37,542 nt of DNA, from the NCBI GenBank assembly GCA_019750035.1, contig JAIEOZ010000074.1:1-37542 (forward strand). The letters are read 5' to 3'. Both the position numbers and the translations under genes were made by a program. Below the pieces are notes generated by a model. It worked only from the letters and a program-made list of their open reading frames with translations. It had not been told where the DNA came from and searched no databases. Positions 27 through 28,674 of this stretch are shown in pieces (positions within the stretch are counted from its first letter, which is position 1; each line of letters begins with the position of its first letter). The DNA is from Alphaproteobacteria bacterium. Its GTDB lineage: Bacteria > Pseudomonadota > Alphaproteobacteria > UBA9655.

Positions 27-77
27 ATTTGGTGGGCCTCCCGTGAGTCGAACACGGTACCAACGGATTATGAGTCC
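27..77 (-). repeat. Left attachment site: tRNA 3'-end fragment, CAU anticodon (51-bp direct repeat, copy 1)
   Basis: On the minus strand this reads as the 3' part of a tRNA: an anticodon loop CTCATAA, a T-arm (CCGTG, TTCGACT, CACGG), the 3' acceptor strand GAGGCCC, a discriminator A and an encoded CCA ending at base 30. The sequence matches 27013-27063 at all 51 positions. Similarity to a tRNA continues to about base 80 (AGCGG closes the anticodon stem), then stops. No D-arm or 5' acceptor strand follows, so this is a fragment and not a working gene. The anticodon fits elongator Met or Ile2; the arm sequences favour Met, but this was not tested. Tyrosine integrases commonly use tRNA 3' ends and regenerate them on insertion, which explains the duplication. 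Confidence 0.88.
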
Positions 78-86
78 GCTTAAATT

Positions 87-119: not shown

Positions 120-205
120 TCCTGTAAACCTTTAAAAAACAATAACTTAACGTGAAAAATATAAATTATTGCGTTGATGGCAATTGATCGATATACTCCA
201 AAATG

Positions 206-246
206 GGTTACATGGCGGTTACATGGCGGTTACATGGGTTACATGA
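206..246 (+). repeat. Four GGTTACATG direct repeats upstream of integrase 1
   Basis: GGTTACATGG occurs at 206-215, 217-226 and 228-237, and GGTTACATGA at 237-246, with periods of 11, 11 and 9 bp. Two related copies (26921-26930 with one variant half, and 26932-26941 exact), also 11 bp apart, lie near the right end of the element. Spacing of about one helical turn and presence at both ends suggest arm-type integrase sites, which would also allow integrase to repress its own promoter. The array explains the apparent in-frame extension of the integrase ORF upstream of base 260. Confidence 0.65.
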
Positions 247-259
247 GCGGGCACAAGCA

Positions 260-1600
260 ATGGCAAAATTAAATTTCACTGCGGGACGCGTAGCGGACTT
301 CAAATGCGAGGCGGGCAAAGCGCAATCCTTTCTTTGGGACACAACTGCCCCCGGTTTAGGGCTGCGCATTACATCAAACGGAGCCAAGGCATACATCTTC
401 CAGTCAAAGCTCAACACGCAAGCCATTCGAATAACGATAGGTTCACCGTCTGTTTGGAATATCGATAAAGCACGCGCCGAAGCAAGGCGTCTAAAAGTGC
501 TCATCGATGGTGGAAAAGACCCGCGCCAAGTCAAGGCGGACGGCCTCGAAGCAGCACAGGTCGCCCGCAAGGTCAAAAAAGCGGCAGAAGCAGCAGCTGC
601 TGCTTTGGTCGAAAAACATACGACGACCTTTCAACAAGTTTGGGACGTTTACCTCGAAGAGCGAAAGCCTCATTGGGGTGAACGACACTACCAAGACCAT
701 GTAAAAAAAATAGCCGCTGGAGGCATCCCCGCACTGCGCGGTACACGTGGTCGCGGTGTGACAATCGCGGGCCCCCTGCACTACTTTGCTTCGATGCCAA
801 TTAGCAGCATTGATTCTGAAACGGTAGAAAAATGGGCTAAGGTGGAAGGCAAAGTTCGTCCGACGTCTGCTCGCCTCGCATGGCGCATGTTGAAGGTGTT
901 TTTCCAATGGTGCTCCGAGAGCAAAAAATACCGTGACCTGATGCAACCTCAGAACCCCGGCAAAACTAAAAAGAGCGGCGAGTCCCTAGGCAAAGCAAAA
1001 TCAAAACGCGATAACCTTGAACTTGCCCAGTTGCCCGGTTGGTTCGAAGCAGTACAAAAATTGCCAAACCCAACTGTTAGCGCTTATCTGCAAACCCTAC
1101 TTTTATCCGGCGCACGCCCCGGCGAGATCTTAGCGATGAAATGGGAAGACATAAATTGGCGATGGGGGTCAATTATTATTCGCGACAAGATAGACGGCGA
1201 ACGCACCATTCCTTTGACGCCATTTGTTTCTCATTTGCTTGCCAAGCTACCAAAGCGCAATGAGTTCGTTTTCTCAAGCTTTCAAGAGAGAGCAGACACT
1301 ATCGGCAAACCCCATTTAGCGCACAAACAAGCGTGCGACGCTGCCGGGTTACAAGGCTTGACGCTGCATGGTTTGCGCAGATCATTCGCTAGTCTGGCCG
1401 AACAAACCGAAGCGCCGGGTGGTGTGGCTGCGCAGATTCAAGGCCACAAACCACAAAGCGCAAGAGAGAAAAGCTATATCGTGCGGCCGATGGATTTTTT
1501 ACGCAAATGGCACATCAACATCGAAGCGTGGATACTTGAGCAGGCACATATTGATTTTTCACCGAAGCCAGCGGGTTTGTCTATAGTGCAAAGAAATTAA
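260..1600 (+). CDS. int: Tyrosine recombinase/integrase of element 1 (DUF4102-type N-terminus)
   Basis: This 446-aa protein should integrate and excise element 1 at the tRNA 3' end. The N-terminal arm-binding DUF4102-like domain covers roughly residues 1-90, a core-binding domain about 110-230, and the catalytic domain about 245-420. Numbered from the chosen start, the catalytic residues are Arg286 (GARPGE), His370 and Arg373 (HGLR), His396 and the nucleophile Tyr406. I chose ATG 260 because residues MAKLNFTAGR match the usual family N-terminus. The ORF remains open upstream to 203 only because it runs through the GGTTACATG repeats. The Shine-Dalgarno is weak. The gene sits directly inside the tRNA fragment and points into the element, the classic island layout. 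Confidence 0.93.
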   Translation: MAKLNFTAGRVADFKCEAGKAQSFLWDTTAPGLGLRITSNGAKAYIFQSKLNTQAIRITIGSPSVWNIDKARAEARRLKVLIDGGKDPRQVKADGLEAAQVARKVKKAAEAAAAALVEKHTTTFQQVWDVYLEERKPHWGERHYQDHVKKIAAGGIPALRGTRGRGVTIAGPLHYFASMPISSIDSETVEKWAKVEGKVRPTSARLAWRMLKVFFQWCSESKKYRDLMQPQNPGKTKKSGESLGKAKSKRDNLELAQLPGWFEAVQKLPNPTVSAYLQTLLLSGARPGEILAMKWEDINWRWGSIIIRDKIDGERTIPLTPFVSHLLAKLPKRNEFVFSSFQERADTIGKPHLAHKQACDAAGLQGLTLHGLRRSFASLAEQTEAPGGVAAQIQGHKPQSAREKSYIVRPMDFLRKWHINIEAWILEQAHIDFSPKPAGLSIVQRN

Positions 1601-8587: not shown

Positions 8588-9913
8588 TTACGCGGCTGCA
8601 ACTTCAATTTCAGGAACCAGTGTTGGTTGCCAGTCTCGCACGTCGATTTTTCCGGTGACGGAAGCGGAGATTAGGGCTGTGCGGCGTTCTTGAATGAATT
8701 CAATCGCAGATAAAGCCCGCTCCAATAAAATATCTAATTTTTTCAGGCTTTTGTCTAAAAATTCCACGATCTGATACTGTTCTTCAATATAAGGAATGGT
8801 CACTTTGAACTTGCCGACAATATCTGCGTTTAGATTCATTTGACTAGTTTCGTTTCCGCCATCTCTAATTGCGTGATAAGCGGCCATGAAGTAGTACCGC
8901 AAATACTGATTAAAAAATCTCTCACTTGCGTAAATAGCGGCACACGCTTGATTGTATGTTGCAGGAACTCCCAATATTGCTACGCGACCTCGTGTCACAC
9001 CTTGACCGTACATCGCCATAAGGAGAGTTCCTGGTGGCGATATTTTCACTGACGAATTTGATATCGCTAGTTCCGTAATGTATTCCTCTGTTTCAAATAT
9101 TTCGTCATATCGCACTTCTCCAGTTTTTATCCATGGAATATTCCCGTTCCAATATTCTGAATTTGTTCGATCAGGCGTCGCTCCCGTAGAAATTTGAGCA
9201 TGGTATCCAATCGATGAAACCGACCAATGCGCAGGCACTTCGCCTAACCACTCCACACCTGATTCGCGCATGGGGGCGTTGGGGTTGAGGCCTTTGGTGA
9301 CAGCATGACTAATCACTGTCTGCCGCTTTTCTTTGAGCAGCTTGATCAACTCTTGCTGCTTCGCTATCAGCGTATCGATCTTGGCGGTTTCGTGGTCGAG
9401 GAAGTTGGCGATTTTTTCTTGCTCGGCGACGGGAGGACAGAAAACAAGCACATTCCCAACTTGTTCGGCGCTAACAGCTTCAAAGGTACTCCCTGTAGAC
9501 ACCGAATCTAATTCACCTTTGATTACAATTACCAGCCACCAGAGAAAATTCCGGTCCAATTTTTCTCGGTTCAGAATTGAACATAAACCACGACCAATAC
9601 CATACCTTTGGTCTGCAATATTTAACGCACCAACAGGTGCTCTAACCGAAAATAGCAATTCACCTGGATTTGCAATTTTTCGAGGAACTACACAATATTG
9701 TTTCGGTGCAGGGTTCTTTGCACCAAACTCAGCATTACCTTGCAAAAATGGCATACCAACGCCGTCTTGATTACAGTCCTCGGAATTTGGCGATTGCCCC
9801 ATGTTAATTGAAGCTTCAAATTTAAGTCGCGACTCATTCCAGTGCTTTGGAATATTTCCAAACCAAATTGCTTCAGAATCCTTATATTCCGCATAAGCCC
9901 TATACCGACTCAT
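8588..9913 (-). CDS. hsdS: Type I restriction specificity subunit S (HsdS)
   Basis: The 441-aa subunit sets the bipartite recognition sequence for both methylation and cleavage. It has the standard layout: target-recognition domain 1 (about residues 15-150), a conserved helical spacer (about 155-205, EQEKIANFLDHETAKIDTLI), domain 2 (about 220-370), and a second helical spacer (about 375-425, EEQYQIVEFLDKSLKKLDIL). Both spacers end in related motifs (RRTALIS and KRQTVIS), the internal repeat that lets one S bind two M subunits. The recognition domains look more AT-rich than the flanking genes, as expected if they are exchanged horizontally. ATG 9913 overlaps the stop of the YhcG gene by 4 bp. 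Confidence 0.95.
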   Translation of the reverse strand: MSRYRAYAEYKDSEAIWFGNIPKHWNESRLKFEASINMGQSPNSEDCNQDGVGMPFLQGNAEFGAKNPAPKQYCVVPRKIANPGELLFSVRAPVGALNIADQRYGIGRGLCSILNREKLDRNFLWWLVIVIKGELDSVSTGSTFEAVSAEQVGNVLVFCPPVAEQEKIANFLDHETAKIDTLIAKQQELIKLLKEKRQTVISHAVTKGLNPNAPMRESGVEWLGEVPAHWSVSSIGYHAQISTGATPDRTNSEYWNGNIPWIKTGEVRYDEIFETEEYITELAISNSSVKISPPGTLLMAMYGQGVTRGRVAILGVPATYNQACAAIYASERFFNQYLRYYFMAAYHAIRDGGNETSQMNLNADIVGKFKVTIPYIEEQYQIVEFLDKSLKKLDILLERALSAIEFIQERRTALISASVTGKIDVRDWQPTLVPEIEVAAA

Positions 9914-10929
9914 ATCCCCTCCCCCTGCGCAATATTCAGCAGATAAAACTCATGCAATTTCGCTTGCAGCAGTTTTTTATCGGGCAACTGGGTTTGGTAT
10001 TCGGCGATCATGGCGGGTGATAGGCTGCGGCTGAGCGCGTATTCGACCACTTCATCATCTTTGCTGGCGCACAGCAGCACGCCGATGGCGGGGTTTTCGT
10101 GGGCTTTGCGGTGGTCGCGGTCTAGGGCTTCGAGGTAGAAGTTGAGTTTGCCCAAGTGTTCTGGCTGAAATTTATCGACCTTGAGTTCTATCGCCACCAG
10201 TGCATTTAAGCCACGGTGAAAAAACAGCAGGTCGAGCGCGAAGTCTTGCTTGCCGACTTGCAAGGGGAATTCACTGCCGACAAAACAAAAGTCGCGGCCT
10301 AGTTCGAGCAAAAAATGCTTGAGTTTGCCCAGCAAACCCTGATGCAAATCGGCTTCGCTGTGCTCTTGCGGCAGATTTAAAAAGTCAACAACATAGCTGT
10401 CTTTGAAGACATTCAGGGCGTCTGGGTGCATTTGTGTCAGCACTGCTGACACTTTCGCAGGGTTAAGTATGACGCGCTCAAATAGCGCGGTAGTAAATTG
10501 CCGTTCCAGCTCACGGCTAGACCATTTTTCTTGCACCGCCATTCTTAGATAAAACTCACGCTCTTCTGCTCGCTTGCTACGGCTGAGTATGGTGAGGTTG
10601 TGCGTCCAAGGCAATTGTCTCAGCAGTGCCGAGACAATTTGGTCATCTTGATAAGTTTCGTAAAACTGACGCATACGGAACAGATTGCGGCGAGTGAATC
10701 CTTGCAAATTTGGCTGGGTAATTGCCAAATGTTGAGCTAAGGCATCCACCACGCCATCGCCCCATTCTGCTGCCTTGATCTTATTACTGATGTACGCGCC
10801 AACTTGCCAATACAACTCAATTAAGGTGGTGTTGACGGCTTGGTAGGCATGTTGCCGCGCTGCCGCGATCAGGTGGACGACTTCAGAAAAATCGGGCTGA
10901 TCTGTTTTCATGACGTGCGTTTTGCTCAT
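9910..10929 (-). CDS. YhcG/DUF1016 family PDDEXK nuclease embedded in the hsd operon
   Basis: This 339-aa protein has a DUF1016 N-terminal helical domain (about residues 10-150, with YWQVGAYI and [13 protein letters not shown]) and a C-terminal PDDEXK nuclease-like domain (about 170-330). The candidate catalytic set is Asp233 (FALDLLFF) with Glu248-x-Lys250 (VAIELK), so the nuclease core looks intact. Its gene overlaps hsdM and hsdS by 4 bp on both sides (ATGA), so it is translated with them. YhcG-type proteins are often found near type I systems. Whether it adds a separate nuclease or is accessory to the complex is unknown. Confidence 0.9.
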
Positions 10930-14532: not shown

Positions 14533-15360
14533 TTACAACTGTTCTATAAACTGAAAAATTCTAGTCGTCCCTTCCATCGCTCCGCATGGAATAGCAACAT
14601 CACCGCGCCTGTCAACCTTTGATTCAGTCGGATTAATACGTATCAACGGGCAATTGATTTCCTCGCCGTGTCTGCGCACTGTCGGAATGGCAGTTCCTGC
14701 ACCGAGTTCAATTACTACTGGCCGATTAAGTTTTTTCAGCCATGCGTCAAGTCTGGCTGTCTGCATGTTCGTACGCATTTCGTCCCAGCGCCAATCCCCA
14801 AACATCAGAATATTCGGGCGAGACATGCCACCACAGACGGGACAAACGGGGAATTCGGATAACAGCTTGCAATTAACCGTATCAATTTCCGGTATAAAAT
14901 CTTTGGCGCTCCAGACCACTTCGCCACAACGATCAGAACATTGCAAGTGATGGATCGAGCCGTGGCATTCCACTACGTGGCCAGCACCAAAACCTGCCTT
15001 CTGAAACTGCGCATCCACATTGCTGGTAAAAACAAACGCGCCATGAGTCATCCGACCCGCTAATTCTAGTAAGGTATTAAAACCCGCATGTGGTATCGTT
15101 TCTCGGTACAGTTGCAGCCGATGTCCATAAAACCCCCATGCCACATGCGGCATCGACGCAAAGGCTTGCGGGTTTGCGATTTCAGCGAATTCCATGCCCA
15201 GTTTTCCAAGTGCCGGATACGCCTTCCAAAAACCATTGTCTCCACGAAAATCAGGCAAACCGGAATCAATCCCCATACCCGCACCCGCTGTTATCAGCAA
15301 ACCGTCGGCCTGTGAAATGAGTACCGCTGCTTCGAAACATGCTTGATCAATTGTCGTCAT
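14533..15360 (-). CDS. Sir2-family NAD-dependent deacylase/ADP-ribosyltransferase
   Basis: A 275-aa stand-alone sirtuin core. The NAD-binding GAGMGIDSGLPDFRG spans 26-40, TSNVD (112-116) replaces the usual TQNID, and the catalytic His is 133 in CHGS. Zinc ligands look complete: Cys141, Cys145, Cys173 and Cys176. The C-terminal NAD motif is ELGAGTAIPTVR at about 218-229. Sirtuins remove acyl groups from lysines using NAD; some bacterial Sir2 domains instead degrade NAD in phage defence. Having the zinc site and a small single domain, this looks more like a deacylase. It lies between the metallopeptidase gene and the MerR/vWA operon, on the same strand, with gaps that suggest its own promoter. 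Confidence 0.92.
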   Translation of the reverse strand: MTTIDQACFEAAVLISQADGLLITAGAGMGIDSGLPDFRGDNGFWKAYPALGKLGMEFAEIANPQAFASMPHVAWGFYGHRLQLYRETIPHAGFNTLLELAGRMTHGAFVFTSNVDAQFQKAGFGAGHVVECHGSIHHLQCSDRCGEVVWSAKDFIPEIDTVNCKLLSEFPVCPVCGGMSRPNILMFGDWRWDEMRTNMQTARLDAWLKKLNRPVVIELGAGTAIPTVRRHGEEINCPLIRINPTESKVDRRGDVAIPCGAMEGTTRIFQFIEQL

Positions 15361-15588: not shown

Positions 15589-15768
15589 TCAAAAAGGTCG
15601 TGTCCGAACCCCATCGTCACACTGGTATTTAGTTGAGTCATTAATTTGCTTACAGTGAGAAGCTTTTACTTCAATTTTCCACTCCCTCAATTGATCGTAG
15701 TTGTAAACGGTATATGAAAAATAAACCAAAGACGCCATTAAAATCGAAATCAGTAATGCTTTTTTCAT
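15589..15768 (-). CDS. 59-aa membrane-anchored or exported small protein with two cysteines
   Basis: Starting with ATG 15768, this ORF overlaps the stop of the preceding gene (TGA 15767-15765) as ATGA, which strongly suggests translational coupling. The N-terminus is two lysines followed by a hydrophobic helix to about residue 20 (MKKALLISILMASLVYFSYT), either a signal peptide or an N-terminal anchor. The remaining 38 residues are polar with Cys39 and Cys50, positioned for a disulfide outside the cytoplasm. It is 59 aa long and resembles nothing that I can name. It is the last gene of the MerR/VIT-vWA operon. Confidence 0.6.
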   Translation of the reverse strand: MKKALLISILMASLVYFSYTVYNYDQLREWKIEVKASHCKQINDSTKYQCDDGVRTRPF

Positions 15769-16253
15769 GAGTCTGCCTTTCTTCGCTTAAACGCTAACCG
15801 CGCCAGTGCGATTACTGCTCCAGCGATTAGAAATCCGACGCATAGCCCCTCAGTACCAGATAATGTACCAAACGACGCTCTGGCTATTGCCCACTGCGCC
15901 TGCGGCAAACCCATGTTAACGTGATACATGCCATCCAAAAACACATGCGAAAAGCTGCCGAATATGCAGGAACCAGCCAACACACTTTTTGATATAAGTG
16001 CCTGCTTATATCTTGTTGGCCTGCATTGCTCCCAACCTCGCCAGACACCATAAGTGATCGCTGCAATCAACGACGCACCCGGCATATTATGCGTAATGAT
16101 ATGCAGATCACTTGCAGAGTTGGTGAGCATTTTGTAGCCCGGCTCCACATCCATAAGTATCTGCGACAAAGCAAACCCAGCAAAGCTGACATGCTTAGGT
16201 GCTACAGCCTTGGCAAGCGTACCAAGGCCAAAATGGAAAGGAGTGAATGGCAT
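15765..16253 (-). CDS. Small membrane-bound metal-dependent hydrolase-like protein (YdjM-like)
   Basis: The 162-aa protein starts with MPFTPFHFGLG, typical of YdjM/DUF457-type membrane hydrolases. Conserved-looking metal-ligand candidates are His7, Asp35 and Glu37 (MDVEP), His51 and His55, then His103, Asp107 and His111 (SHVFLDGMYH). About three hydrophobic segments are present (roughly 53-70, 88-106 and 125-145), so it should sit in the inner membrane. Family substrates are poorly defined; phospholipid or lipid-linked substrates have been suggested for relatives. The gene ends in a 4-bp overlap with the 59-aa ORF and starts about 200 nt after the SGNH gene, on the same strand. Confidence 0.7.
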   Translation of the reverse strand: MPFTPFHFGLGTLAKAVAPKHVSFAGFALSQILMDVEPGYKMLTNSASDLHIITHNMPGASLIAAITYGVWRGWEQCRPTRYKQALISKSVLAGSCIFGSFSHVFLDGMYHVNMGLPQAQWAIARASFGTLSGTEGLCVGFLIAGAVIALARLAFKRRKADS

Positions 16254-16455
16254 GAAAAATTCGCTTTCGGAAACATGCTACAGGTTAAGGAGCTTAAAAA
16301 TACACCATCGCTATGCAGCTATATTTCAAAGACCTCTGAATAAGTTACTGCGCGACCAAATCTATAATATTCTGATGTGATGCGCACCAAGTCTTCGTAA
16401 GATTGCGCATCTCGATGCAAACCTCGACCGCTCGTTACATTTAATCAGCGAGTCC

Positions 16456-17076
16456 TTAAAATTCCATCCCCATTGAATTCAACCACTCAGCTATTGCAAG
16501 CGCAATTTTTCTGCCACCCACCTCTGAAGGTTCAATAGGTGAAAGTGCTGAATAATCATTTCGCTCAGTGCAAACTAGCCGTAAATCAATCACAGGCACT
16601 TTGGCAGCAAACGCCTCGCGCACAATAGTGTCGTTAAAAATGGCTAGTGCGGTTTGTGATTCAACGGAGAGATCCGGTATTGCGTCATATATCGTGCAGA
16701 TTGCTAACGGAAGTTCCGCGCTTAATACCTGCCATAGCATAGTTCGATACCTGCGCTGAAAATCTCTGCGAATTTGGGAGAGTTGCAACAATCCTTCCCC
16801 AACCGTATCGACTCGGTCAGAAAAAATACCTAGTGCATTCAGTGCATCGTTTCCACCTATGCTCACAACCAAATGAGTCGCATCGAGAGGAATTTTCGCT
16901 ATTTGGTTTTCCACGTTCGCCACCACATCGCCGTCATGCGCAATGAGCGTTGCCTTCCAAGACGCTGGCAGAGTGTGGCGCATATGATCGATTACGGCCA
17001 ATTCGCCCGGTACATAGATTGCGTTGTCAAAAATTGAATCGCCCAACAAAACCAGATGTGATTTTGTTTTAGTCAT
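16456..17076 (-). CDS. SGNH/GDSL-family hydrolase, atypical C-terminal catalytic block
   Basis: This 206-aa cytoplasmic protein shows the SGNH core: the nucleophile motif LLGDSIFDN (GDS at 12-14), a Gly region near 41-49 and GGND at 74-77. In the last block the usual DxxH is not seen. Instead Asp174 is followed by SPIEPSEVGG (about 179-188), where Glu182 stands near the expected His position. Similar PIEPS endings occur in some members of the family that I recall, so this may be a subgroup and not a dead enzyme. Esterase or lipase activity is the family expectation. ATG 17076 has GGGGGAG at good spacing; the gene overlaps the 177-aa gene by 8 bp. Confidence 0.85.
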   Translation of the reverse strand: MTKTKSHLVLLGDSIFDNAIYVPGELAVIDHMRHTLPASWKATLIAHDGDVVANVENQIAKIPLDATHLVVSIGGNDALNALGIFSDRVDTVGEGLLQLSQIRRDFQRRYRTMLWQVLSAELPLAICTIYDAIPDLSVESQTALAIFNDTIVREAFAAKVPVIDLRLVCTERNDYSALSPIEPSEVGGRKIALAIAEWLNSMGMEF

Positions 17077-17602
17077 CACACTCCCCCGTAAAAATCTCTT
17101 TAAATTGCTCAGGCTTTAATTGTGGACACAATTCTGGTAATCGCTCAAAAAAGGCATTTACTTGTTCGTCCGGAAGATGCACCGTTACGTTGTAGAACTG
17201 AAAAAACTCATCGAGTTCCCAATATCCATCGCAATGATCTAAAAATTCTTTGAGTGCATCGGTGATGAATACATCATCAAAATGTTCTCTGAGTCCATCA
17301 AACGCTTTCTCTTTCAAATCATTTCGGCCAGTGGTGCTCGGTGGAAGCATGTACAAACCTAGGTCTGCTTTAAAATGACGCATCGCCCCTGTAGTTACCA
17401 TGCGAACCAATCTGTATCTACCAGAGTCCAGCTTCTCTCCTTCAAAGATATCACCATGGAGTATTCTAAAATCCGTGGAAAATTCCAACGAACGCTGGCA
17501 AAAGAAAAGATTCTCCTCTAAGGGCGTGACGAGCAATGTTTCCGTCGTACCCTCGGCGTTGACGATAACGATCTCAACTTGATTATGTTCACTTTGATTC
17601 AT
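17069..17602 (-). CDS. 177-aa acidic soluble protein, unknown function
   Basis: No signal peptide, membrane segment or known motif. The N-terminal 60 residues look beta-rich (VEIVIVNAEGTTETLLVTPL), and the rest is mostly helical and acidic, ending ECDD. Overlap with the SGNH hydrolase gene (8 bp from its likely ATG) indicates co-translation and possibly a physical partnership. It follows the frameshifted Cys/His-rich ORF in the operon by about 40 nt. I cannot assign a function. Confidence 0.75.
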   Translation of the reverse strand: MNQSEHNQVEIVIVNAEGTTETLLVTPLEENLFFCQRSLEFSTDFRILHGDIFEGEKLDSGRYRLVRMVTTGAMRHFKADLGLYMLPPSTTGRNDLKEKAFDGLREHFDDVFITDALKEFLDHCDGYWELDEFFQFYNVTVHLPDEQVNAFFERLPELCPQLKPEQFKEIFTGECDD

Positions 17603-17642
17603 GGTTTTTTTGTCTCCATCCTTGCTTCAATCGCATTTTTGT

Positions 17643-17857
17643 TTACCAACAATGAACCAAACAATGCGGATGGTCTGGATCTAAGGTTAAAATATCTTGA
17701 ACCGCATGACCGTGGATGGGACAACTGAATCGCTCACGATGTGCACCAACCACTCTACGCATCTCATCCAGAAAATTATTGATCGCATTGATCATCTGAG
17801 CACGGTCAAACGCAATTCAAAACGATTGAGCGGCTTACCCTTCTCCACTTGTGTCAT
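17643..17857 (-). pseudogene. Frameshifted Cys/His-rich small protein gene
   Basis: ATG 17857 overlaps the VIT-vWA stop as ATGA and opens a 21-codon ORF (MTQVEKGKPLNRFELRL...) ending at TGA 17792-17794. Reading then continues in the next frame to TAA 17643-17645, with FDRAQMINAINNFLDEMRR and a zinc-like pattern CPIHGH followed by HPHCLVHC. One missing base near CGTTTGACC would join the two parts into a protein of about 71 aa. Alternatively, an internal ATG overlapping the first stop (ATGA again) could start a separate 50-aa Cys/His peptide. A recent mutation, a sequencing error and a programmed frameshift all remain possible. Confidence 0.55.
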
Positions 17858-20292
17858 GCCTGCTCTTCCAAAATAAAATCCGGCCAAAATAATGCCTGCA
17901 TTCCCACCATGGCATCTGTAATATCCGCCACAGTTGCAACGTCGACACTTGAATCGATCAACGCGTTTGGTGAGGCGATGAATATCTCTCGCAGTCGGAA
18001 TATCATTTCTTTAAAACTAAATGTCCTTCTAATCTGCGACATGAGGTTGTGACAAACCTCGCTCTGTGATATCACATATAGAAAGCTGGCAACCAACATG
18101 GACTCTGTCCTTACAACGGCTTGACTGTTTCCGACGATCAGTTCTAGCCAATCGAGGACGTCATCACTTACACCATTCTCTCGAAGTTCTGCATAAGTCG
18201 TTGGCCAATCAGTTTTTGGTATCAGTTTTAGCCACGCAGATAACCCTAATGGAGTCAAAACCATTCGATCATTGTGCTTCGCCCAAAAATATTTATTGTT
18301 CTGGTCGACCAAAGCAGCAACTAGCTCGCGATTTGAAAAAATCTGCGGATGACTAACGACGATTGGTTTGTGATCGCCGTCATCAATTCTCAAGAACTTA
18401 GGCATATAAAAAGTACATTCACCAACTCCTTTCAATGCTCGCACTTGATCTGAAGGCGACTCTCGTCGCCACACAGCAGGCCTAGAAAGGCCACCAGAAC
18501 TATTCGACGAGCTTTCCTTTCGCATGAAGCGCATGTCGCTCGTACCACCCCATCCCGCAGGAGCCATATGCTTGACCTGATGAAGCTCGGGCATATCGGT
18601 GGCCTTGTCCGCCTCATCACGCTCATGCACTAAAAGAAAATTCGTACACTCCGACACCAATTTATAAGAAACCGCCAATTGCTGCGCGATTACCTTATCT
18701 GGCGCATTGTTCAGTGTATTGATTTGATTGTTAGCAGCCACTCTGGAGAGCGTCTCGTCAGCGCTGGAATTTGAATCAAGTAAAACAGTGCTTATTTCTT
18801 CTTGCTCAACATTGCCCACGCGCTGCCCAAAAAGTCGCAATACGCCTTCTGGTTGCGTTGGCAACAAGGTAAATACATTGACTGTATCGCTATCGAACAC
18901 GTTGACATCGAGGCTTGAAACCCAAATAGGTGCGCATGCTTCTGGCCACACTAACGAGATCGACTCCAATCGCGGCGAGCGCAATCTTGTAAACATTCTC
19001 AGGATAGCTGGTTCGACCGCTTCACCCGGCGCAACAAAATCACACGCCCCGCCGGTAGCTTGTGCTAGCCGACGTAAGTGGCTCTCTGCCGGACTAGTAC
19101 CAATGCCCACAATAAAGATTCGATGACCAGATGCTTTAGCCGACGCCATTACATTATCGACGCTGTCAATTTCTCCGTCGGTAATCATCAACACATCGCC
19201 ACAAGATTTACCAGACAGTGTGAACGTCGAAAATAAAGCGGCCTCCATTTCTGTTCCGCCTAGCGTCGCATCCAGATTGTTTATCCAGCGCCATGCAGCG
19301 AGCTTACTGTTAGCGGTTGCCTTCCACATCGCACGAGAGCGATGCTCTACAGTACTGCCAAAACTGGACAATGAATAACGATCTCCCTCGCCCAGTTGAG
19401 TAACTATCGCCTGCAATGCACGACGTGCAGAAGCAATACTGACACCAGCCATAGACCCAGAACAATCAACCAGCAAATTAACATCAATACTTAGTAACTC
19501 ATCTTGCGCGATTCGAGGGCAAAAACTAGCCATCACGATATGGTGACTTGCGTTTAACTTATCTCGTCCACTAACAGCAATAGAGTTTTGCTGCAATTGA
19601 TCGAGTACAAGCACAAAATCTCTATCAAGAGCACCGAGCCGTGCCAACGATAGTGTCACTACATCGTTCTTGGTGACGAGCGCGATGGGATGCGTTGGTG
19701 ACGCCACCCGTGCACTTGCCAACGCACCGTGGAGTCGCAATTCAATGTCAAACGGATATTCAGCAAAAACATCATTCTGTGGTCGCAAATATGCAGGAAT
19801 TTTACTTTGCGCAGCATTTTGATCAGGCCCAACTTCATAATGTGGCGCGATTACCGTTGGTATCAGCAGGCGCAATCCGCGCTGCTCAAATTGCAGTGTT
19901 TGCGCATACTGAAAATGGATCACGCAATGCTCTTTGGGGGCAATATTGCCAAGACTTAGGCTATAACTATGATCACTATTTTTCTCTAACATGATGGCCG
20001 TATCGCCATCCGACAACGCTTCTTCATATAGCGCTTCAGCCTGCTTTTTCTCTACCACTGCACCTTTGAGTTTTTGATCACCCAGTGTCACTTCAACATT
20101 GAGCAAGACAGCTCCCCAAGGCAAAGGAAAGGTATAGACAATCTCCGCATGGCAATCGTAGGTATTAAAAAATCGTTGCGTCACGTGCATATCAAGCATG
20201 AGGCCGCAAACATCTCCGCTGACTTCCATTCCTTCTAAAGCCATCTGCTTACCACTAATCGTTTTTAAACTGGCATGCACAAGCTTGCTCAT
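17854..20292 (-). CDS. VIT and von Willebrand factor A domain protein
   Basis: An 812-aa protein. The VIT (inter-alpha-trypsin) domain covers about residues 10-135 (MHVTQRFFNTYDCHAEIVYTF region), and the vWA domain about 265-440. The metal-ion-dependent adhesion site is complete: DCSGS (about 276-280), Thr in GGTE (about 347) and TDGE (about 371). The C-terminal 350 residues are less conserved and have no domain that I know. There is no signal peptide, so it probably acts in the cytoplasm as a metal-dependent protein-binding scaffold. I prefer ATG 20292 to 20298 because AAAGGAA then has normal spacing. It is 56 nt after merR, so co-transcribed, and overlaps the next ORF by 4 bp. Confidence 0.9.
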   Translation of the reverse strand: MSKLVHASLKTISGKQMALEGMEVSGDVCGLMLDMHVTQRFFNTYDCHAEIVYTFPLPWGAVLLNVEVTLGDQKLKGAVVEKKQAEALYEEALSDGDTAIMLEKNSDHSYSLSLGNIAPKEHCVIHFQYAQTLQFEQRGLRLLIPTVIAPHYEVGPDQNAAQSKIPAYLRPQNDVFAEYPFDIELRLHGALASARVASPTHPIALVTKNDVVTLSLARLGALDRDFVLVLDQLQQNSIAVSGRDKLNASHHIVMASFCPRIAQDELLSIDVNLLVDCSGSMAGVSIASARRALQAIVTQLGEGDRYSLSSFGSTVEHRSRAMWKATANSKLAAWRWINNLDATLGGTEMEAALFSTFTLSGKSCGDVLMITDGEIDSVDNVMASAKASGHRIFIVGIGTSPAESHLRRLAQATGGACDFVAPGEAVEPAILRMFTRLRSPRLESISLVWPEACAPIWVSSLDVNVFDSDTVNVFTLLPTQPEGVLRLFGQRVGNVEQEEISTVLLDSNSSADETLSRVAANNQINTLNNAPDKVIAQQLAVSYKLVSECTNFLLVHERDEADKATDMPELHQVKHMAPAGWGGTSDMRFMRKESSSNSSGGLSRPAVWRRESPSDQVRALKGVGECTFYMPKFLRIDDGDHKPIVVSHPQIFSNRELVAALVDQNNKYFWAKHNDRMVLTPLGLSAWLKLIPKTDWPTTYAELRENGVSDDVLDWLELIVGNSQAVVRTESMLVASFLYVISQSEVCHNLMSQIRRTFSFKEMIFRLREIFIASPNALIDSSVDVATVADITDAMVGMQALFWPDFILEEQA

Positions 20293-20348
20293 CGTCATTT
20301 CCTTTTATTATTTATTGTGTGATTTCTGTTTGGCTACAAAAACACATG

Positions 20349-20798
20349 CTATTTTTTATTGCTACGCGCATCAGCTTCATTGGTCTGGCTAATATCTGTA
20401 TACGCTTGCATCACTTGTCGCACAAACTGGCGCACCTGCTCTGGTGACAATCCGGCTCGGTTTGGTTCGATGACAATCTCGATACCATCTACGACGGTTA
20501 AATGACTGCACACTTCAATACTGCCCGGTGCACGCACGCGAAGCGGAACAGGGGCGCTCTCACCTTGCAGAAGTTCTCGGATGCGCTCCAGCGAGACACC
20601 CGCGTTCGTCCATTTCTTGATGAGGAGAATTTGCTCAAGATGGCGCGAGCCGTATTTTGCTGCACGCGTCTCGCCTTCGGGTTTGCTCACTAGGCCAATC
20701 TGAACGTAATAACGCACAGTACGAATTGGCATATCCGCTAAAACGCAGAGATCAGCCAATGCATATTCCGTCGCAGTAATTGATGTGGTTTTATTCAT
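20349..20798 (-). CDS. MerR-family transcriptional regulator
   Basis: The 149-aa protein has an N-terminal winged-HTH of MerR type (about residues 12-78), seen in LADLCVLADMPIRTVRYYVQ and in the segment with GSRHLEQILLIKKW. The C-terminal part lacks the cysteine metal ligands of metal-sensing members and is a short helical region. It heads the leftward operon with the VIT-vWA gene. ATG 20798 is preferred to the upstream TTG at 20804; neither has a clear ribosome site. A promoter with consensus -35 lies directly upstream and includes a direct repeat, so autoregulation and control of both this operon and the divergent 360-aa gene are plausible. Confidence 0.88.
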   Translation of the reverse strand: MNKTTSITATEYALADLCVLADMPIRTVRYYVQIGLVSKPEGETRAAKYGSRHLEQILLIKKWTNAGVSLERIRELLQGESAPVPLRVRAPGSIEVCSHLTVVDGIEIVIEPNRAGLSPEQVRQFVRQVMQAYTDISQTNEADARSNKK

Positions 20799-20805
20799 AC
20801 ACAAA

Positions 20806-20854
20806 ATTAAAACACTTTTACTGTATTAAAACAAGTGGCAAAATGTATTGTCAA
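20806..20854 (-). promoter_or_regulatory. Promoter of the MerR/VIT-vWA operon with direct-repeat operator candidate
   Basis: On the minus strand, TTGACA (20849-20854) is followed after 18 bp by TTTAAT (20825-20830), leading into merR. The 18-bp spacer is within the longer range typical of MerR-controlled promoters. ATTAAAACA occurs twice (plus strand, 20806-20814 and 20825-20833; period 19 bp), the second copy covering the -10 box. No strong dyad is seen within the spacer itself, so the operator assignment is tentative. Confidence 0.6.
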
Positions 20855-20966
20855 TTCTTTAAATTCAAATCGCGCCAGACATGTAAAGAAATTTAATCAA
20901 TAATAATCACGATCAGACGATCCACTCCTCATAAGACTAGGAACCCGGCTTTCCGCCTAAAAGCAA

Positions 20967-22049
20967 ATGCACTCAATAAAATCCCTGCTATCAGAAGAAA
21001 AGCGTGCGCTGTTGCACGCTCCAGACCGCCTGAATATTGGTCGTTATCGCTCTCTAGGCTCAAAAAGAGAAGATCACGAATTTATTGTGGCGTTAGACGC
21101 GCAACCGTTATCAACGCTCTTTGATGCGGCAAGCGATGGAAGCCGCCTTTATGAGTTGATGACTATCACGCGCCCTGCTGACGTGCTGCACTACCTTCAT
21201 CTAACGATGCTCGATGTCAGCGAGGAAGTGTTGAGCAGTGTGAAAGGTGCTATTAAATTCAAAACCAGATTTAAAGAGATCTCCTTCGAAAACGGCATTT
21301 CCTTTACGGAGTTCGATAGTTGTTTTTACTTAAGAGGCGACGACACCGAACCGTATGAAGAGAACTGGGTAACACATCGCACGGGTAGCTATTGGCATAA
21401 AAAAATGCATGCACTCCTCTCACTCACGAAAGAAATACAGCAACGCGTTCGTCAGATTAATGATTTCCTGATCCAACATGAAATTAAATTAATTGACCTG
21501 GGTTTGCATCATCGAGACGCACTTACCCATATCGACCGATTGCCATTATCGGTGAACAAAGCGTATTCACAGACAAAATTGCCATCGCCACTATTTGAAA
21601 TGATTGCGCAATTAATCAAAAGAGATGATGTCAAGTCAGTGTCTTGCCCCTTTACCGACTATCCGCTATGGCGATTACTGGTTGAAGAACAGATTCGCCG
21701 TACACAAGCGAGCGGACTACCACCTAAGGAAGCTTTTTATCTCAGTAGCTGTGATGGAGGCCAAATGAATCTAACGGGTGCCGACAGCAGGCGATATCCA
21801 AATGAACCGCAAGATTGGGGCGGCACAGTGCATGTACCGTATGAAGGCGCAACGGGTGGCGACTTATTCATTGAACCAGATTGGCATCGATTTCCGTGGG
21901 CGTTAGAGGGCGAAGGCGGGAAATTTTCACGCGTTAGCGCTAGCAAACCCTGTCGCTTTTTACTGTCTGAAAAAAATTACACCAACCTAGAATGTGCAAG
22001 TCGCACACAAATTGGCGACTGGATACTTTATACGGACGAAAAAATGTAA
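20967..22049 (+). CDS. 360-aa protein divergent from the MerR operon, unknown function
   Basis: A soluble protein without signal peptide or membrane helices. The middle (about residues 130-230) is helical, and the C-terminal third is rich in Trp, Gly and Asp (DWGGTVHVPYEGATGGDLFI, then EPDWHRFPWAL), resembling a beta-rich domain. No catalytic motif that I recognise. The start at 20967 lacks an evident ribosome site but is the first ATG. It faces away from merR across a 168-bp shared intergenic region, so it may belong to the same regulon. Base composition resembles that of the vWA operon. Confidence 0.75.
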   Translation: MHSIKSLLSEEKRALLHAPDRLNIGRYRSLGSKREDHEFIVALDAQPLSTLFDAASDGSRLYELMTITRPADVLHYLHLTMLDVSEEVLSSVKGAIKFKTRFKEISFENGISFTEFDSCFYLRGDDTEPYEENWVTHRTGSYWHKKMHALLSLTKEIQQRVRQINDFLIQHEIKLIDLGLHHRDALTHIDRLPLSVNKAYSQTKLPSPLFEMIAQLIKRDDVKSVSCPFTDYPLWRLLVEEQIRRTQASGLPPKEAFYLSSCDGGQMNLTGADSRRYPNEPQDWGGTVHVPYEGATGGDLFIEPDWHRFPWALEGEGGKFSRVSASKPCRFLLSEKNYTNLECASRTQIGDWILYTDEKM

Positions 22050-27012: not shown

Positions 27013-27063
27013 ATTTGGTGGGCCTCCCGTGAGTCGAACACGGTACCAACGGATTATGAGTCC
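27013..27063 (-). repeat. Internal attachment site: tRNA 3'-end fragment (51-bp direct repeat, copy 2)
   Basis: Identical to 27-77 over 51 bp. On the minus strand it runs from the anticodon stem through the T-arm and acceptor strand to the encoded CCA at 27016. The bases just beyond (TCTA at 27064-27067) no longer match the tRNA: the anticodon stem keeps the G-T end pair but has an A-G mismatch. This copy is both the right end of element 1 and the left end of element 2. Confidence 0.88.
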
Positions 27064-27178
27064 TCTAGTTTGACGTTTTCAACCCTAGCAAAATCAACGG
27101 GTTAGACCGTAAGTCCTTGATTTCATTCAAATTGTTAGTATTGCTAGGTATCACTTGGTACTGTTCAGTAGTCTTGTG

Positions 27179-27207
27179 TTGTAGCCTATTTTGTAGCCTT
27201 GTAGCCT
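27179..27207 (+). repeat. Three TTGTAGCCT direct repeats upstream of integrase 2
   Basis: TTGTAGCCT occurs at 27179-27187, 27191-27199 and 27199-27207, 70 bp before the second integrase. The arrangement parallels the GGTTACATG array of element 1 with a different motif, as expected if each integrase has its own arm-site specificity. Confidence 0.6.
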
Positions 27208-27276
27208 GAAATACGCTAAAGTAGAAGTTCTTACACAAAAACTTTTTTTGAACTCAACCTACAAGGCACATGCATT

Positions 27277-28674
27277 ATGACAGAACAGGTTAAAACTCGC
27301 ATCCCATTCAACAAGCTGAACTTGGATGCAATCCCCTTCTCTACAGACGGTAAGCAAGTAACTTACTACGATACCAACAAGACCAACCTTTCACTTCGTG
27401 TTGGTGCAAGTAGCAAAACCTTCATTGTCTATACAAGACCTAAACACGGAAATCCTGTTCGTATTACTTTGGGCAAATACGGTGAAATCACCATCAAGCA
27501 AGCTTCTGATTTGGCTTCAAAAGAACTTGCAAAGTTAGCTGATGGGTTCAATCCTGTTGAAGAAAAAAAGAAAATTAAAATTGAAAAAGAAGTGGCAAAA
27601 GCTACTTCTGAACAAACATTTAAGTGGATGATGGACACTTATAAAGCTGAACAAATCATTGCTCATAAAGGTGGTTCAGAAAGCACACTTCACAACATTG
27701 CTACAACAATGGATTACTTTGACACTAGAAAAGTCATGACTCTCAAGTTAAATGAAGAAGATAAAACTTGGTCTAATGATATGGAAGTTCATCTTGAATC
27801 TTGGCATGATTTATCTTTTCGCTCAATTACAAGACAACAAGTGATTGACCGTTTTAATGTATTAGAAAAAGCAAGACCAACAAGAAATAAAAAGGTACTT
27901 GCTCCAATCACTAGAACACACCAAATGTCTTTCAAGTTTGCAAGTTCAGCATTTAATTATGTTATCCAAAGAGATGAACTTGATGTTAAAGAAGACTTAA
28001 GAAATCCATTTGACATTCTTTCAAATAGAAAGAAATGGAAGAAAGCAAATGCAAGAACTAATTTTGTAGACTTCAATCGTTCTGAGTTTGGCACTTGGTG
28101 GAAAGCTGTTGAAGAATATGATTTTCATAATTACCTTGTTTCAGATTACATTCTTTTCTCTTTACTTCAAGCAGGAAGAAGTATTGATGTTGCTCCTTTA
28201 AAATGGAAGGATGTTGATATGGAACTTGAAAGAATTACTTATTTTGATACAAAGAATGGTGAAGAATACATTTTTCCAATAACAAAAAAAGTAAAAGAAA
28301 TTCTGAATCGTCGCCTGAAATATAATAAAGATACAATTCATGTCTTTGATTATTCAGGAAGCAAATTAGGTCATGTTCCTCAAGATTGCCAACATCACTT
28401 TAAAGTCATTGGACAAAAATCAGGTAAATTGATTTCACATCATGATATAAGAAGGACTTGGGGAACAGCAGCAATGTCATTAGATATGAATGAAAGAATG
28501 GCTGATTACTGCCTTAAACATACAATCAATGATGTGAATAGACATTACTTTATGAGAAATGAACCAAAAATTCTTAAAGCAATGCAATCCATAGAAAACT
28601 TTTTTGAAGGAAAAATTGTTCAATCTCTTAAAGATGAAGATGAACAAGAATATCAAAGGGAGATTGCAGAATGA
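27277..28674 (+). CDS. int: Tyrosine recombinase/integrase of element 2
   Basis: 465 aa. A DUF4102-like N-terminal arm-binding domain (about residues 15-95, NLSLRVGASSKTFIVYTR) precedes a core-binding region (about 105-250) and the catalytic domain (about 255-430). Catalytic residues: Arg301 (QAGRSID), His389 and Arg392 (HHDIRR), His415 (LKHT) and Tyr424. The glutamate usual in the Arg I motif is not present (DVAPLKW instead), a mild departure. It is distant from integrase 1 though it targets the same tRNA end. AT-rich codon use matches element 2. The stop overlaps the start of the HTH gene as ATGA (28671-28674), so integrase and HTH protein are co-translated. Confidence 0.92.
   Translation: MTEQVKTRIPFNKLNLDAIPFSTDGKQVTYYDTNKTNLSLRVGASSKTFIVYTRPKHGNPVRITLGKYGEITIKQASDLASKELAKLADGFNPVEEKKKIKIEKEVAKATSEQTFKWMMDTYKAEQIIAHKGGSESTLHNIATTMDYFDTRKVMTLKLNEEDKTWSNDMEVHLESWHDLSFRSITRQQVIDRFNVLEKARPTRNKKVLAPITRTHQMSFKFASSAFNYVIQRDELDVKEDLRNPFDILSNRKKWKKANARTNFVDFNRSEFGTWWKAVEEYDFHNYLVSDYILFSLLQAGRSIDVAPLKWKDVDMELERITYFDTKNGEEYIFPITKKVKEILNRRLKYNKDTIHVFDYSGSKLGHVPQDCQHHFKVIGQKSGKLISHHDIRRTWGTAAMSLDMNERMADYCLKHTINDVNRHYFMRNEPKILKAMQSIENFFEGKIVQSLKDEDEQEYQREIAE

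What the first reader, a model, noticed from the sequence alone, without database searches (positions are those of the whole stretch)
15589..22049. MerR/VIT-vWA operon with SGNH hydrolase, YdjM-like protein and a divergent unknown: candidate new system
A MerR regulator with its own promoter heads a leftward run: VIT-vWA scaffold, Cys/His-rich small protein, 177-aa unknown, SGNH hydrolase, YdjM-like membrane hydrolase and a Cys-containing exported or anchored peptide. Several junctions overlap (ATGA or 8 bp). A 360-aa unknown is divergent from the same regulatory region. A metal-dependent protein-binding scaffold, two hydrolase-like enzymes and a membrane component under one regulator look like a membrane or lipid-directed stress or defence pathway. 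I know of no described system with this composition. The 200-nt gap before the YdjM-like gene is the weakest link.
Basis: inference. Interest (0 to 1): 0.65.

Follow-up and report, generated by a model that had tools for sequence, protein, structure and literature searches.

The report
Mobile MerR regulator–VIT-vWA gene pair
A MerR-type switch protein and a VIT-vWA protein (a relative of the vault-associated protein PARP4) form a conserved, self-regulated gene pair that turns up on bacterial islands, plasmids and a viral contig; the enzymes next to it in this window are unrelated neighbours, so the larger eight-gene system that was proposed is not real, and what the pair does is still unknown.

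Summary
The ORFs are real, but the proposed eight-gene system is not supported. What is conserved is a two-gene module: a 149-aa MerR regulator followed by a cytosolic VIT-vWA protein with an intact MIDAS motif. I found the same pair at nine other loci: two genomes of the window's class, four of another class, plasmids of Massilia and Aquabacterium, and one IMG/VR contig. The genes overlap at most junctions.

The merR promoter carries a conserved, previously unannotated operator, ACAGT-N3-rNTGT, between the -35 and -10 boxes. It ranks first in every locus by leave-one-out, and scores 27.9 against 4.3 for the next-best position in a locus kept out of the model. About 30 other VIT-vWA loci lack this MerR.

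None of the other loci carries the SGNH, 177-aa, YdjM-like, 59-aa or 360-aa genes. The SGNH has solitary relatives on rhizobial plasmids. The 177-aa and 360-aa proteins have no relatives in anything searched.

Window 1-27066 is a GC 47% island inserted at a tRNA(CAU) gene in a GC 31% host, with a type I restriction system.

Most likely mechanism (inferred): MerR auto-controls VIT-vWA, which feeds back on MerR, as DnaK does on HspR. Function in stress or phage defence is open.

The parts
20804..20839 (-). merR promoter-operator: -35 TTGTTT (20834-20829), 13-bp imperfect dyad ACAGT-AAA-AGTGT (20824-20812), -10 TTTAAT (20811-20806), 17-bp spacer; predicted start of transcription close to the ATG (near leaderless)
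   Evidence: motif shared by 9 loci, IC 19.4 bits against 14.4-15.5 in 12 shuffles; leave-one-out rank 1 in all nine loci and top hit in held-out L079, 27.9 against 4.3; spacing
20349..20798 (-). MerR-family regulator, 149 aa: MerR HTH plus short C-terminal part with conserved SH / GxE motif, no conserved cysteines
   Evidence: Pfam MerR_1 4.9e-15; ortholog alignment A2, 45-49% identity; nine-sequence alignment; Cys count
17854..20298 (-). VIT-vWA protein, 814 aa, cytosolic (no signal peptide or TM), MIDAS D278-C-S280-G-S282 / T349 / D374 intact, conserved tail after vWA
   Evidence: Pfam VIT 1.9e-24, VWA_3 3.9e-16; alignment A1; closest solved structure PARP4, 7e-54; hydropathy
17643..17795 (-). 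50-aa Cys/His ORF (and a 20-aa ORF before it), doubtful gene
   Evidence: no family hits; negative coding score and no clear RBS
17069..17602 (-). 177-aa orphan protein, overlapping the SGNH gene; passenger
   Evidence: no relatives in 385 genomes, plasmids or viral contigs; single-sequence model poor, pLDDT 49
16456..17079 (-). SGNH/GDSL hydrolase, 207 aa (GDS and GGND blocks present); passenger with stand-alone relatives
   Evidence: Lipase_GDSL_2 4e-07; about 50% identical solitary genes on rhizobial plasmids
15765..16253 (-). 162-aa membrane protein, weakly YdjM/DUF4184-like; unrelated passenger, 202 nt after the SGNH gene
   Evidence: YdjM 17.3 bits, below cut-off 29; no plasmid relatives
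15589..15768 (-). 59-aa single-TM peptide overlapping the 162-aa gene by 4 bp; passenger
   Evidence: hydropathy
20967..22049 (+). 360-aa divergent orphan; not part of the module
   Evidence: coding score positive; no relatives; no MerR operator in front of it
27..80 (-). direct repeat = 3' part of tRNA(CAU) gene, left attachment site of the island
   Evidence: 54-nt repeat with 27013-27066, 98% identical; fits tRNA anticodon, T-arm and CCA sequence by eye
27013..27066 (-). second copy of the tRNA 3' end, right attachment site; GC drops from about 0.47 to 0.31 here
203..1600 (+). tyrosine integrase of the island
   Evidence: Phage_integrase 4.4e-13

Best explanation
The functional unit is a two-gene, autoregulated module (MerR regulator + cytosolic VIT-vWA protein), carried as cargo on a tRNA-integrated island. 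SHOWN: the pair is conserved and its genes usually touch or overlap; the VIT-vWA subfamily is discrete; the MerR goes with that subfamily and not with other VIT-vWA proteins; a MerR-type dyad is conserved between -35 and -10 of the merR promoter; and the SGNH, 177-aa, YdjM-like, 59-aa and 360-aa genes are absent from the other loci, i.e. local passengers. INFERRED (about 0.35 for this detail): a MerR dimer sits on the dyad and keeps the near-17-bp-spacer promoter low. VIT-vWA binds a protein ligand through its Mg2+/Ca2+ MIDAS site. The amount or ligand state of VIT-vWA feeds back on MerR through MerR's short SH/GxE C-terminal part, as DnaK does on the MerR-family repressor HspR. Stress or invasion titrates VIT-vWA, the promoter opens and more of the pair is made.
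For: Pair found at G049, G112, Massilia plasmid, Aquabacterium plasmid, G611, G831, G922, G856 and IMG/VR contig L079. Bimodal scores: 464-1225 bits with MerR at nine of the ten loci in the first table (all but G803) and at L079 (806 bits), against 190-278 bits without it; the one exception in the low group is a weak MerR at Nonomuraea. Overlapping or touching junctions in 7 of 9. MerR and VIT-vWA identities co-vary, Mantel r 0.90, and 0.54 (p 0.016) without one member of each of the two closest pairs. Operator evidence. Accessory genes absent from the other loci. Weak HspR match of MerR, 30 bits against a cut-off of 105.
Against: No expression or binding data. Promoter spacing varies (16-19 bp by best score), so repression versus activation is not settled. 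In the window the MerR/VIT-vWA gap is 50 nt rather than an overlap. The window operator scores only slightly above the best chance site (15.4 against 14.4). One member (G803) has VIT-vWA without this MerR. Feedback by VIT-vWA on MerR is inference only.
Confidence: 0.72

Rival explanations
1. The merR-VIT-vWA pair is an anti-phage or conflict module: VIT-vWA recognises or assembles on an invader protein, and MerR raises its dose on infection.
For: Mobile settings: tRNA island with type I restriction, plasmids with type IV-like restriction, type I methyltransferase and AbiEii-like genes, a viral contig, and a TmtA/sacsin-like gene 127 nt downstream in G112.
Against: Other members sit among housekeeping genes (G049 TypA-like; G611 nitrite reductase and amino-acid transport). 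There is no PADLOC model for VIT-vWA. No enrichment test against background was made, and there is no nuclease or toxin in the pair.
Confidence: 0.25
2. The pair is a chemical- or envelope-stress response: MerR senses a small ligand or metal directly and induces VIT-vWA, without feedback by the latter.
For: MerR proteins mostly sense small molecules or metals (general knowledge). In related genomes the VIT-vWA gene lies with PP2C and Clp-like AAA genes or with YceG_bac and AIM24 genes, types known from Ter-like stress clusters (the Ter link is from memory).
Against: No conserved cysteine or typical metal-binding tail in this MerR; the C-terminal part is short. The VIT-vWA protein is not an enzyme or pump that would remove a ligand.
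Confidence: 0.3
3. One reading: MerR, VIT-vWA, Cys/His peptide, 177-aa, SGNH, YdjM-like, 59-aa and the divergent 360-aa protein form one new membrane- or lipid-directed system.
For: Same strand and short gaps from 20798 to 16456; 8-11 bp overlap of 177-aa and SGNH.
Against: None of the other loci carries any of these partners; SGNH relatives are solitary; 202-nt gap before the YdjM-like gene; no operator in front of the 360-aa gene.
Confidence: 0.05
4. The 177-aa + SGNH pair is a separate cargo cassette that merely reads through from the merR-VIT-vWA promoter (compatible with the best explanation).
For: The two genes overlap; no own operator; 252-nt gap after VIT-vWA.
Against: No second occurrence of the pair was found, so its unity is not shown.
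Confidence: 0.5

Closest known systems
Marine proteobacterial sortase target protein (TIGR03788, VIT-vWA)
   Same: VIT + vWA order; profile match 1.8e-71
   Different: Scores 241 bits, far below the cut-off 551.65. The window protein has no hydrophobic segment, so it is not a sorted surface protein. Low-scoring VIT-vWA relatives lack the MerR.
PARP4 / inter-alpha-trypsin inhibitor heavy chains (solved VIT-vWA structures)
   Same: Whole VIT-vWA-beta region aligns with PARP4 (7e-54); MIDAS kept
   Different: No ADP-ribosyltransferase or BRCT part; bacterial; tied to a MerR regulator.
HspR-DnaK feedback of MerR-family repressors
   Same: MerR-family regulator of its own operon; weak sequence match to HspR
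   Different: Far below the HspR cut-off; the partner is VIT-vWA, not a chaperone ATPase; feedback not shown.
CueR/MerR metal regulators
   Same: MerR HTH; dyad between -35 and -10
   Different: No conserved Cys metal site; spacer mostly about 17-18 bp rather than 19-20; C-terminal part unlike.
MoxR-vWA ternary conflict systems (PMC7159879)
   Same: vWA protein in putative conflict loci
   Different: No MoxR ATPase in the pair; that paper contains neither VIT nor MerR.
MADS defence system (mad1 regulator)
   Same: Weak HTH match, 18.5 bits
   Different: No other MADS component was matched among the finding's proteins.

Membership tests
MerR family | N-terminal winged HTH of MerR type | tested here: met
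   Pfam MerR_1 55.8 bits over cut-off 21.6
MerR family | dyad operator between -35 and -10 of the controlled promoter | tested here: met
   conserved dyad in ten loci by sequence; binding itself not tested
MerR metal sensors (CueR/MerR/ZntR) | conserved Cys/His metal site in the C-terminal part | tested here: not met
   no invariant Cys; two members have none
HspR-type repressors | NCBIfam HspR equivalog score | tested here: not met
   30.2 bits, cut-off 105
HspR-type feedback | partner protein acts as co-repressor of its own operon | not testable with these tools
   needs reporter and binding assays
VIT-vWA proteins | VIT domain followed by vWA with MIDAS DxSxS..T..D | tested here: met
TIGR03788 sortase-target VIT-vWA | equivalog score and secreted, cell-wall-sorted form | tested here: not met
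   241 bits against cut-off 551.65; no TM or signal
MoxR-vWA systems | MoxR-type AAA ATPase encoded with the vWA protein | tested here: not met
   none in the window operon or common to the other loci
   no hit in the other loci
Anti-phage defence system | protects against phage | not testable with these tools
   only setting (islands, restriction genes nearby) known; no PADLOC model

The most novel reading that the evidence does not exclude
An undescribed mobile regulatory pair in which a bacterial PARP4-like VIT-vWA protein serves as both the effector and the sensor partner of a dedicated MerR regulator with its own operator class, forming a cytosolic stress or invader switch.
Probability: 0.35. 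Interest if true: 0.68.

Novelty: new variant of a known kind. Interest (0 to 1): 0.42.

Why it matters
Bacterial VIT-vWA proteins are widespread and related to eukaryotic vault PARP4 and to inter-alpha-trypsin inhibitor heavy chains, but their bacterial job is largely unknown. A two-gene module with a predicted operator gives a compact, testable handle: one promoter, one binding site, one effector. It also moves the question away from the unrelated neighbouring enzymes.

Tried and rejected
Single-sequence structure prediction of the 177-aa and 360-aa orphans gave poor models (pLDDT 49 and 32), so no fold search was run. A phage-record search for VIT-vWA and viral-contig searches for VIT-vWA, the 360-aa and the 177-aa proteins were empty. 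Several literature searches for a VIT/MerR pair, or for the bacterial VIT-vWA family, found no description; only open-licence papers are held. A possible role of the weak mad1/MADS match was rejected as generic HTH similarity. The idea that the MerR operator also serves the divergent 360-aa gene was not supported: no second site was found by matrix scan. The 50-aa Cys/His ORF as a real zinc peptide was rejected for lack of coding signal and relatives.
Full report
Observation. Pfam gives MerR_1 (4.9e-15) for 20349-20798, VIT (1.9e-24) plus VWA_3 (3.9e-16) for 17854-20298, Lipase_GDSL_2 (4e-07, slightly under cut-off) for 16456-17079, and only sub-threshold YdjM/DUF4184 matches for 15765-16253. 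Nothing meaningful is found for the 177-aa, 50-aa and 360-aa proteins. PADLOC, NCBIfam and PHROGs add only generic MerR matches and a below-cut-off TIGR03788 match for VIT-vWA. The 177-aa, SGNH and 360-aa ORFs have coding-like codon use compared with their own alternative frames; the 50-aa ORF does not.

Setting. Window 1-27066 is an inserted element. A 54-nt direct repeat at 27-80 and 27013-27066 reads as the 3' part of a tRNA with anticodon CAU. An integrase lies next to the left copy, and GC falls from about 0.47 to about 0.31 at the right copy. A second integrase (27277-28674) begins right after the right copy, so a second element of the host's own composition seems to be in tandem. Cargo of the first element: a type I restriction system with a YhcG/DUF1016 nuclease gene, an IrrE-like peptidase, a Sir2 protein, the finding, and phage-like replication genes. 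The same 18.4 kb is present at 99.9% identity in MAG contig JAIETO010000138.1. The 14 same-genus genomes and 2 same-family genomes searched lack the VIT-vWA gene.

The conserved unit. A protein search in the class found relatives at 39% and 37% identity in G049 and G112, and plasmids of Massilia sp. H6 and Aquabacterium olei gave 37-38%. In all four the gene directly upstream is a MerR of the same kind, 45-49% identical to the window's. A profile of these five VIT-vWA proteins then found G611, G803, G831, G922 and G856 in another class, and a profile of the MerR found an IMG/VR contig (L079) with VIT-vWA directly after the MerR. Scores are bimodal: loci at 464 bits and above carry the MerR except G803, while about 30 loci at 190-278 bits do not; the exception among these is a weak MerR (37.6 bits) next to the Nonomuraea VIT-vWA. 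For G112 the automatic nearness test missed the MerR because the open frame of VIT-vWA runs across it; it is there. The reverse also holds on plasmids: the only two good matches to this MerR (49.6% and 44.9%) are the two next to VIT-vWA. MerR/VIT-vWA genes touch or overlap in 7 of 9 loci. Pairwise identities of the two proteins co-vary (Mantel r 0.90, driven partly by close pairs; 0.54, p 0.016 after removing one of each close pair).

Operator. The 150 bp upstream of merR in nine loci share a motif with an imperfect dyad ACAGT-N3-rNTGT just before the -10 box, and a -35-like TTG about 17-18 bp upstream of that box. Information content is 19.4 bits without the redundant G049 copy, against 14.4-15.5 in 12 dinucleotide-shuffled sets. 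A leave-one-out matrix ranks the true site first in all nine loci, and in L079, which was not used to build it, the site scores 27.9 against 4.3 for the next position, which is nearly the same site read on the other strand. In the window the margin is small (15.4 against 14.4). There is no second site in front of the divergent 360-aa gene or the downstream genes. In most loci the -10 lies so close to the start codon that the merR transcript is probably nearly leaderless.

The partners are passengers. tblastn of the SGNH, 177-aa, 162-aa, 59-aa, 50-aa and 360-aa proteins against the other MerR/VIT-vWA loci gives nothing at E<=0.01, while VIT-vWA matches in every one. SGNH relatives of about 45-50% identity stand alone among unrelated genes on rhizobial and azospirillar plasmids. 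The 360-aa and 177-aa proteins are orphans in 190 and 385 genomes, in plasmids and in viral contigs; the 360-aa protein is also absent from phage records.

How it probably works. The VIT-vWA protein is soluble by hydropathy, keeps the MIDAS residues, and its closest solved relative is PARP4 over the whole VIT-vWA-beta region. The MerR has no conserved cysteine, so a classical metal sensor is unlikely; its short C-terminal part carries conserved SH and GxE motifs. The simplest model is autoregulation by MerR with feedback from VIT-vWA or its ligand, by analogy with HspR-DnaK; that step is inference (about 0.35). Whether the trigger is stress or invasion is open. Settings include restriction and other defence-type genes in four of the loci (window; others) and PP2C/Clp-like/YceG/AIM24 neighbours in related genomes, but also housekeeping neighbours, and no background comparison was made.

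Novelty. No paper in the held library describes the pair; subscription papers are not held, so this is weak evidence. I rate it a new variant of a known kind: the domain families are known, but the coupling to a dedicated MerR and operator appears undescribed.

Noticed in passing
window 14668-14905: All 15 differences between the window and the otherwise identical 18.4-kb MAG contig JAIETO010000138.1 fall within 238 bp of the Sir2-like gene (8 amino-acid changes), a sign of local recombination, strain variation or chimeric assembly.
   Followed up: partly
window 27013-28674: A second integrase directly follows the right attachment site and has host-like low GC, so two elements seem to sit in tandem at the same tRNA(CAU) gene.
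   Followed up: partly
window 9910-10929: A YhcG/DUF1016 PDDEXK nuclease gene lies between hsdM and hsdS of the type I restriction system.
   Followed up: no
L014:11216-14389: In G112 a sacsin/NOV_C protein similar to PADLOC TmtA models follows the VIT-vWA gene by 127 nt on the same strand.
   Followed up: partly
L071:8321-13801, L072:3491-10766: In genomes of one family the VIT-vWA gene lies with PP2C and Clp-like AAA genes, or with YceG_bac and AIM24 genes, reminiscent of Ter-like stress clusters; G803 has VIT-vWA without the MerR.
   Followed up: partly
L023:5078-8358: Nonomuraea (Actinomycetota) has a weak MerR match (37.6 bits) directly upstream of its VIT-vWA gene, so the coupling may be older than Proteobacteria.
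   Followed up: no
window 20798-20811 and other merR starts: The -10 box lies only a few bases before the merR start codon in most loci, suggesting a leaderless merR transcript.
   Followed up: partly
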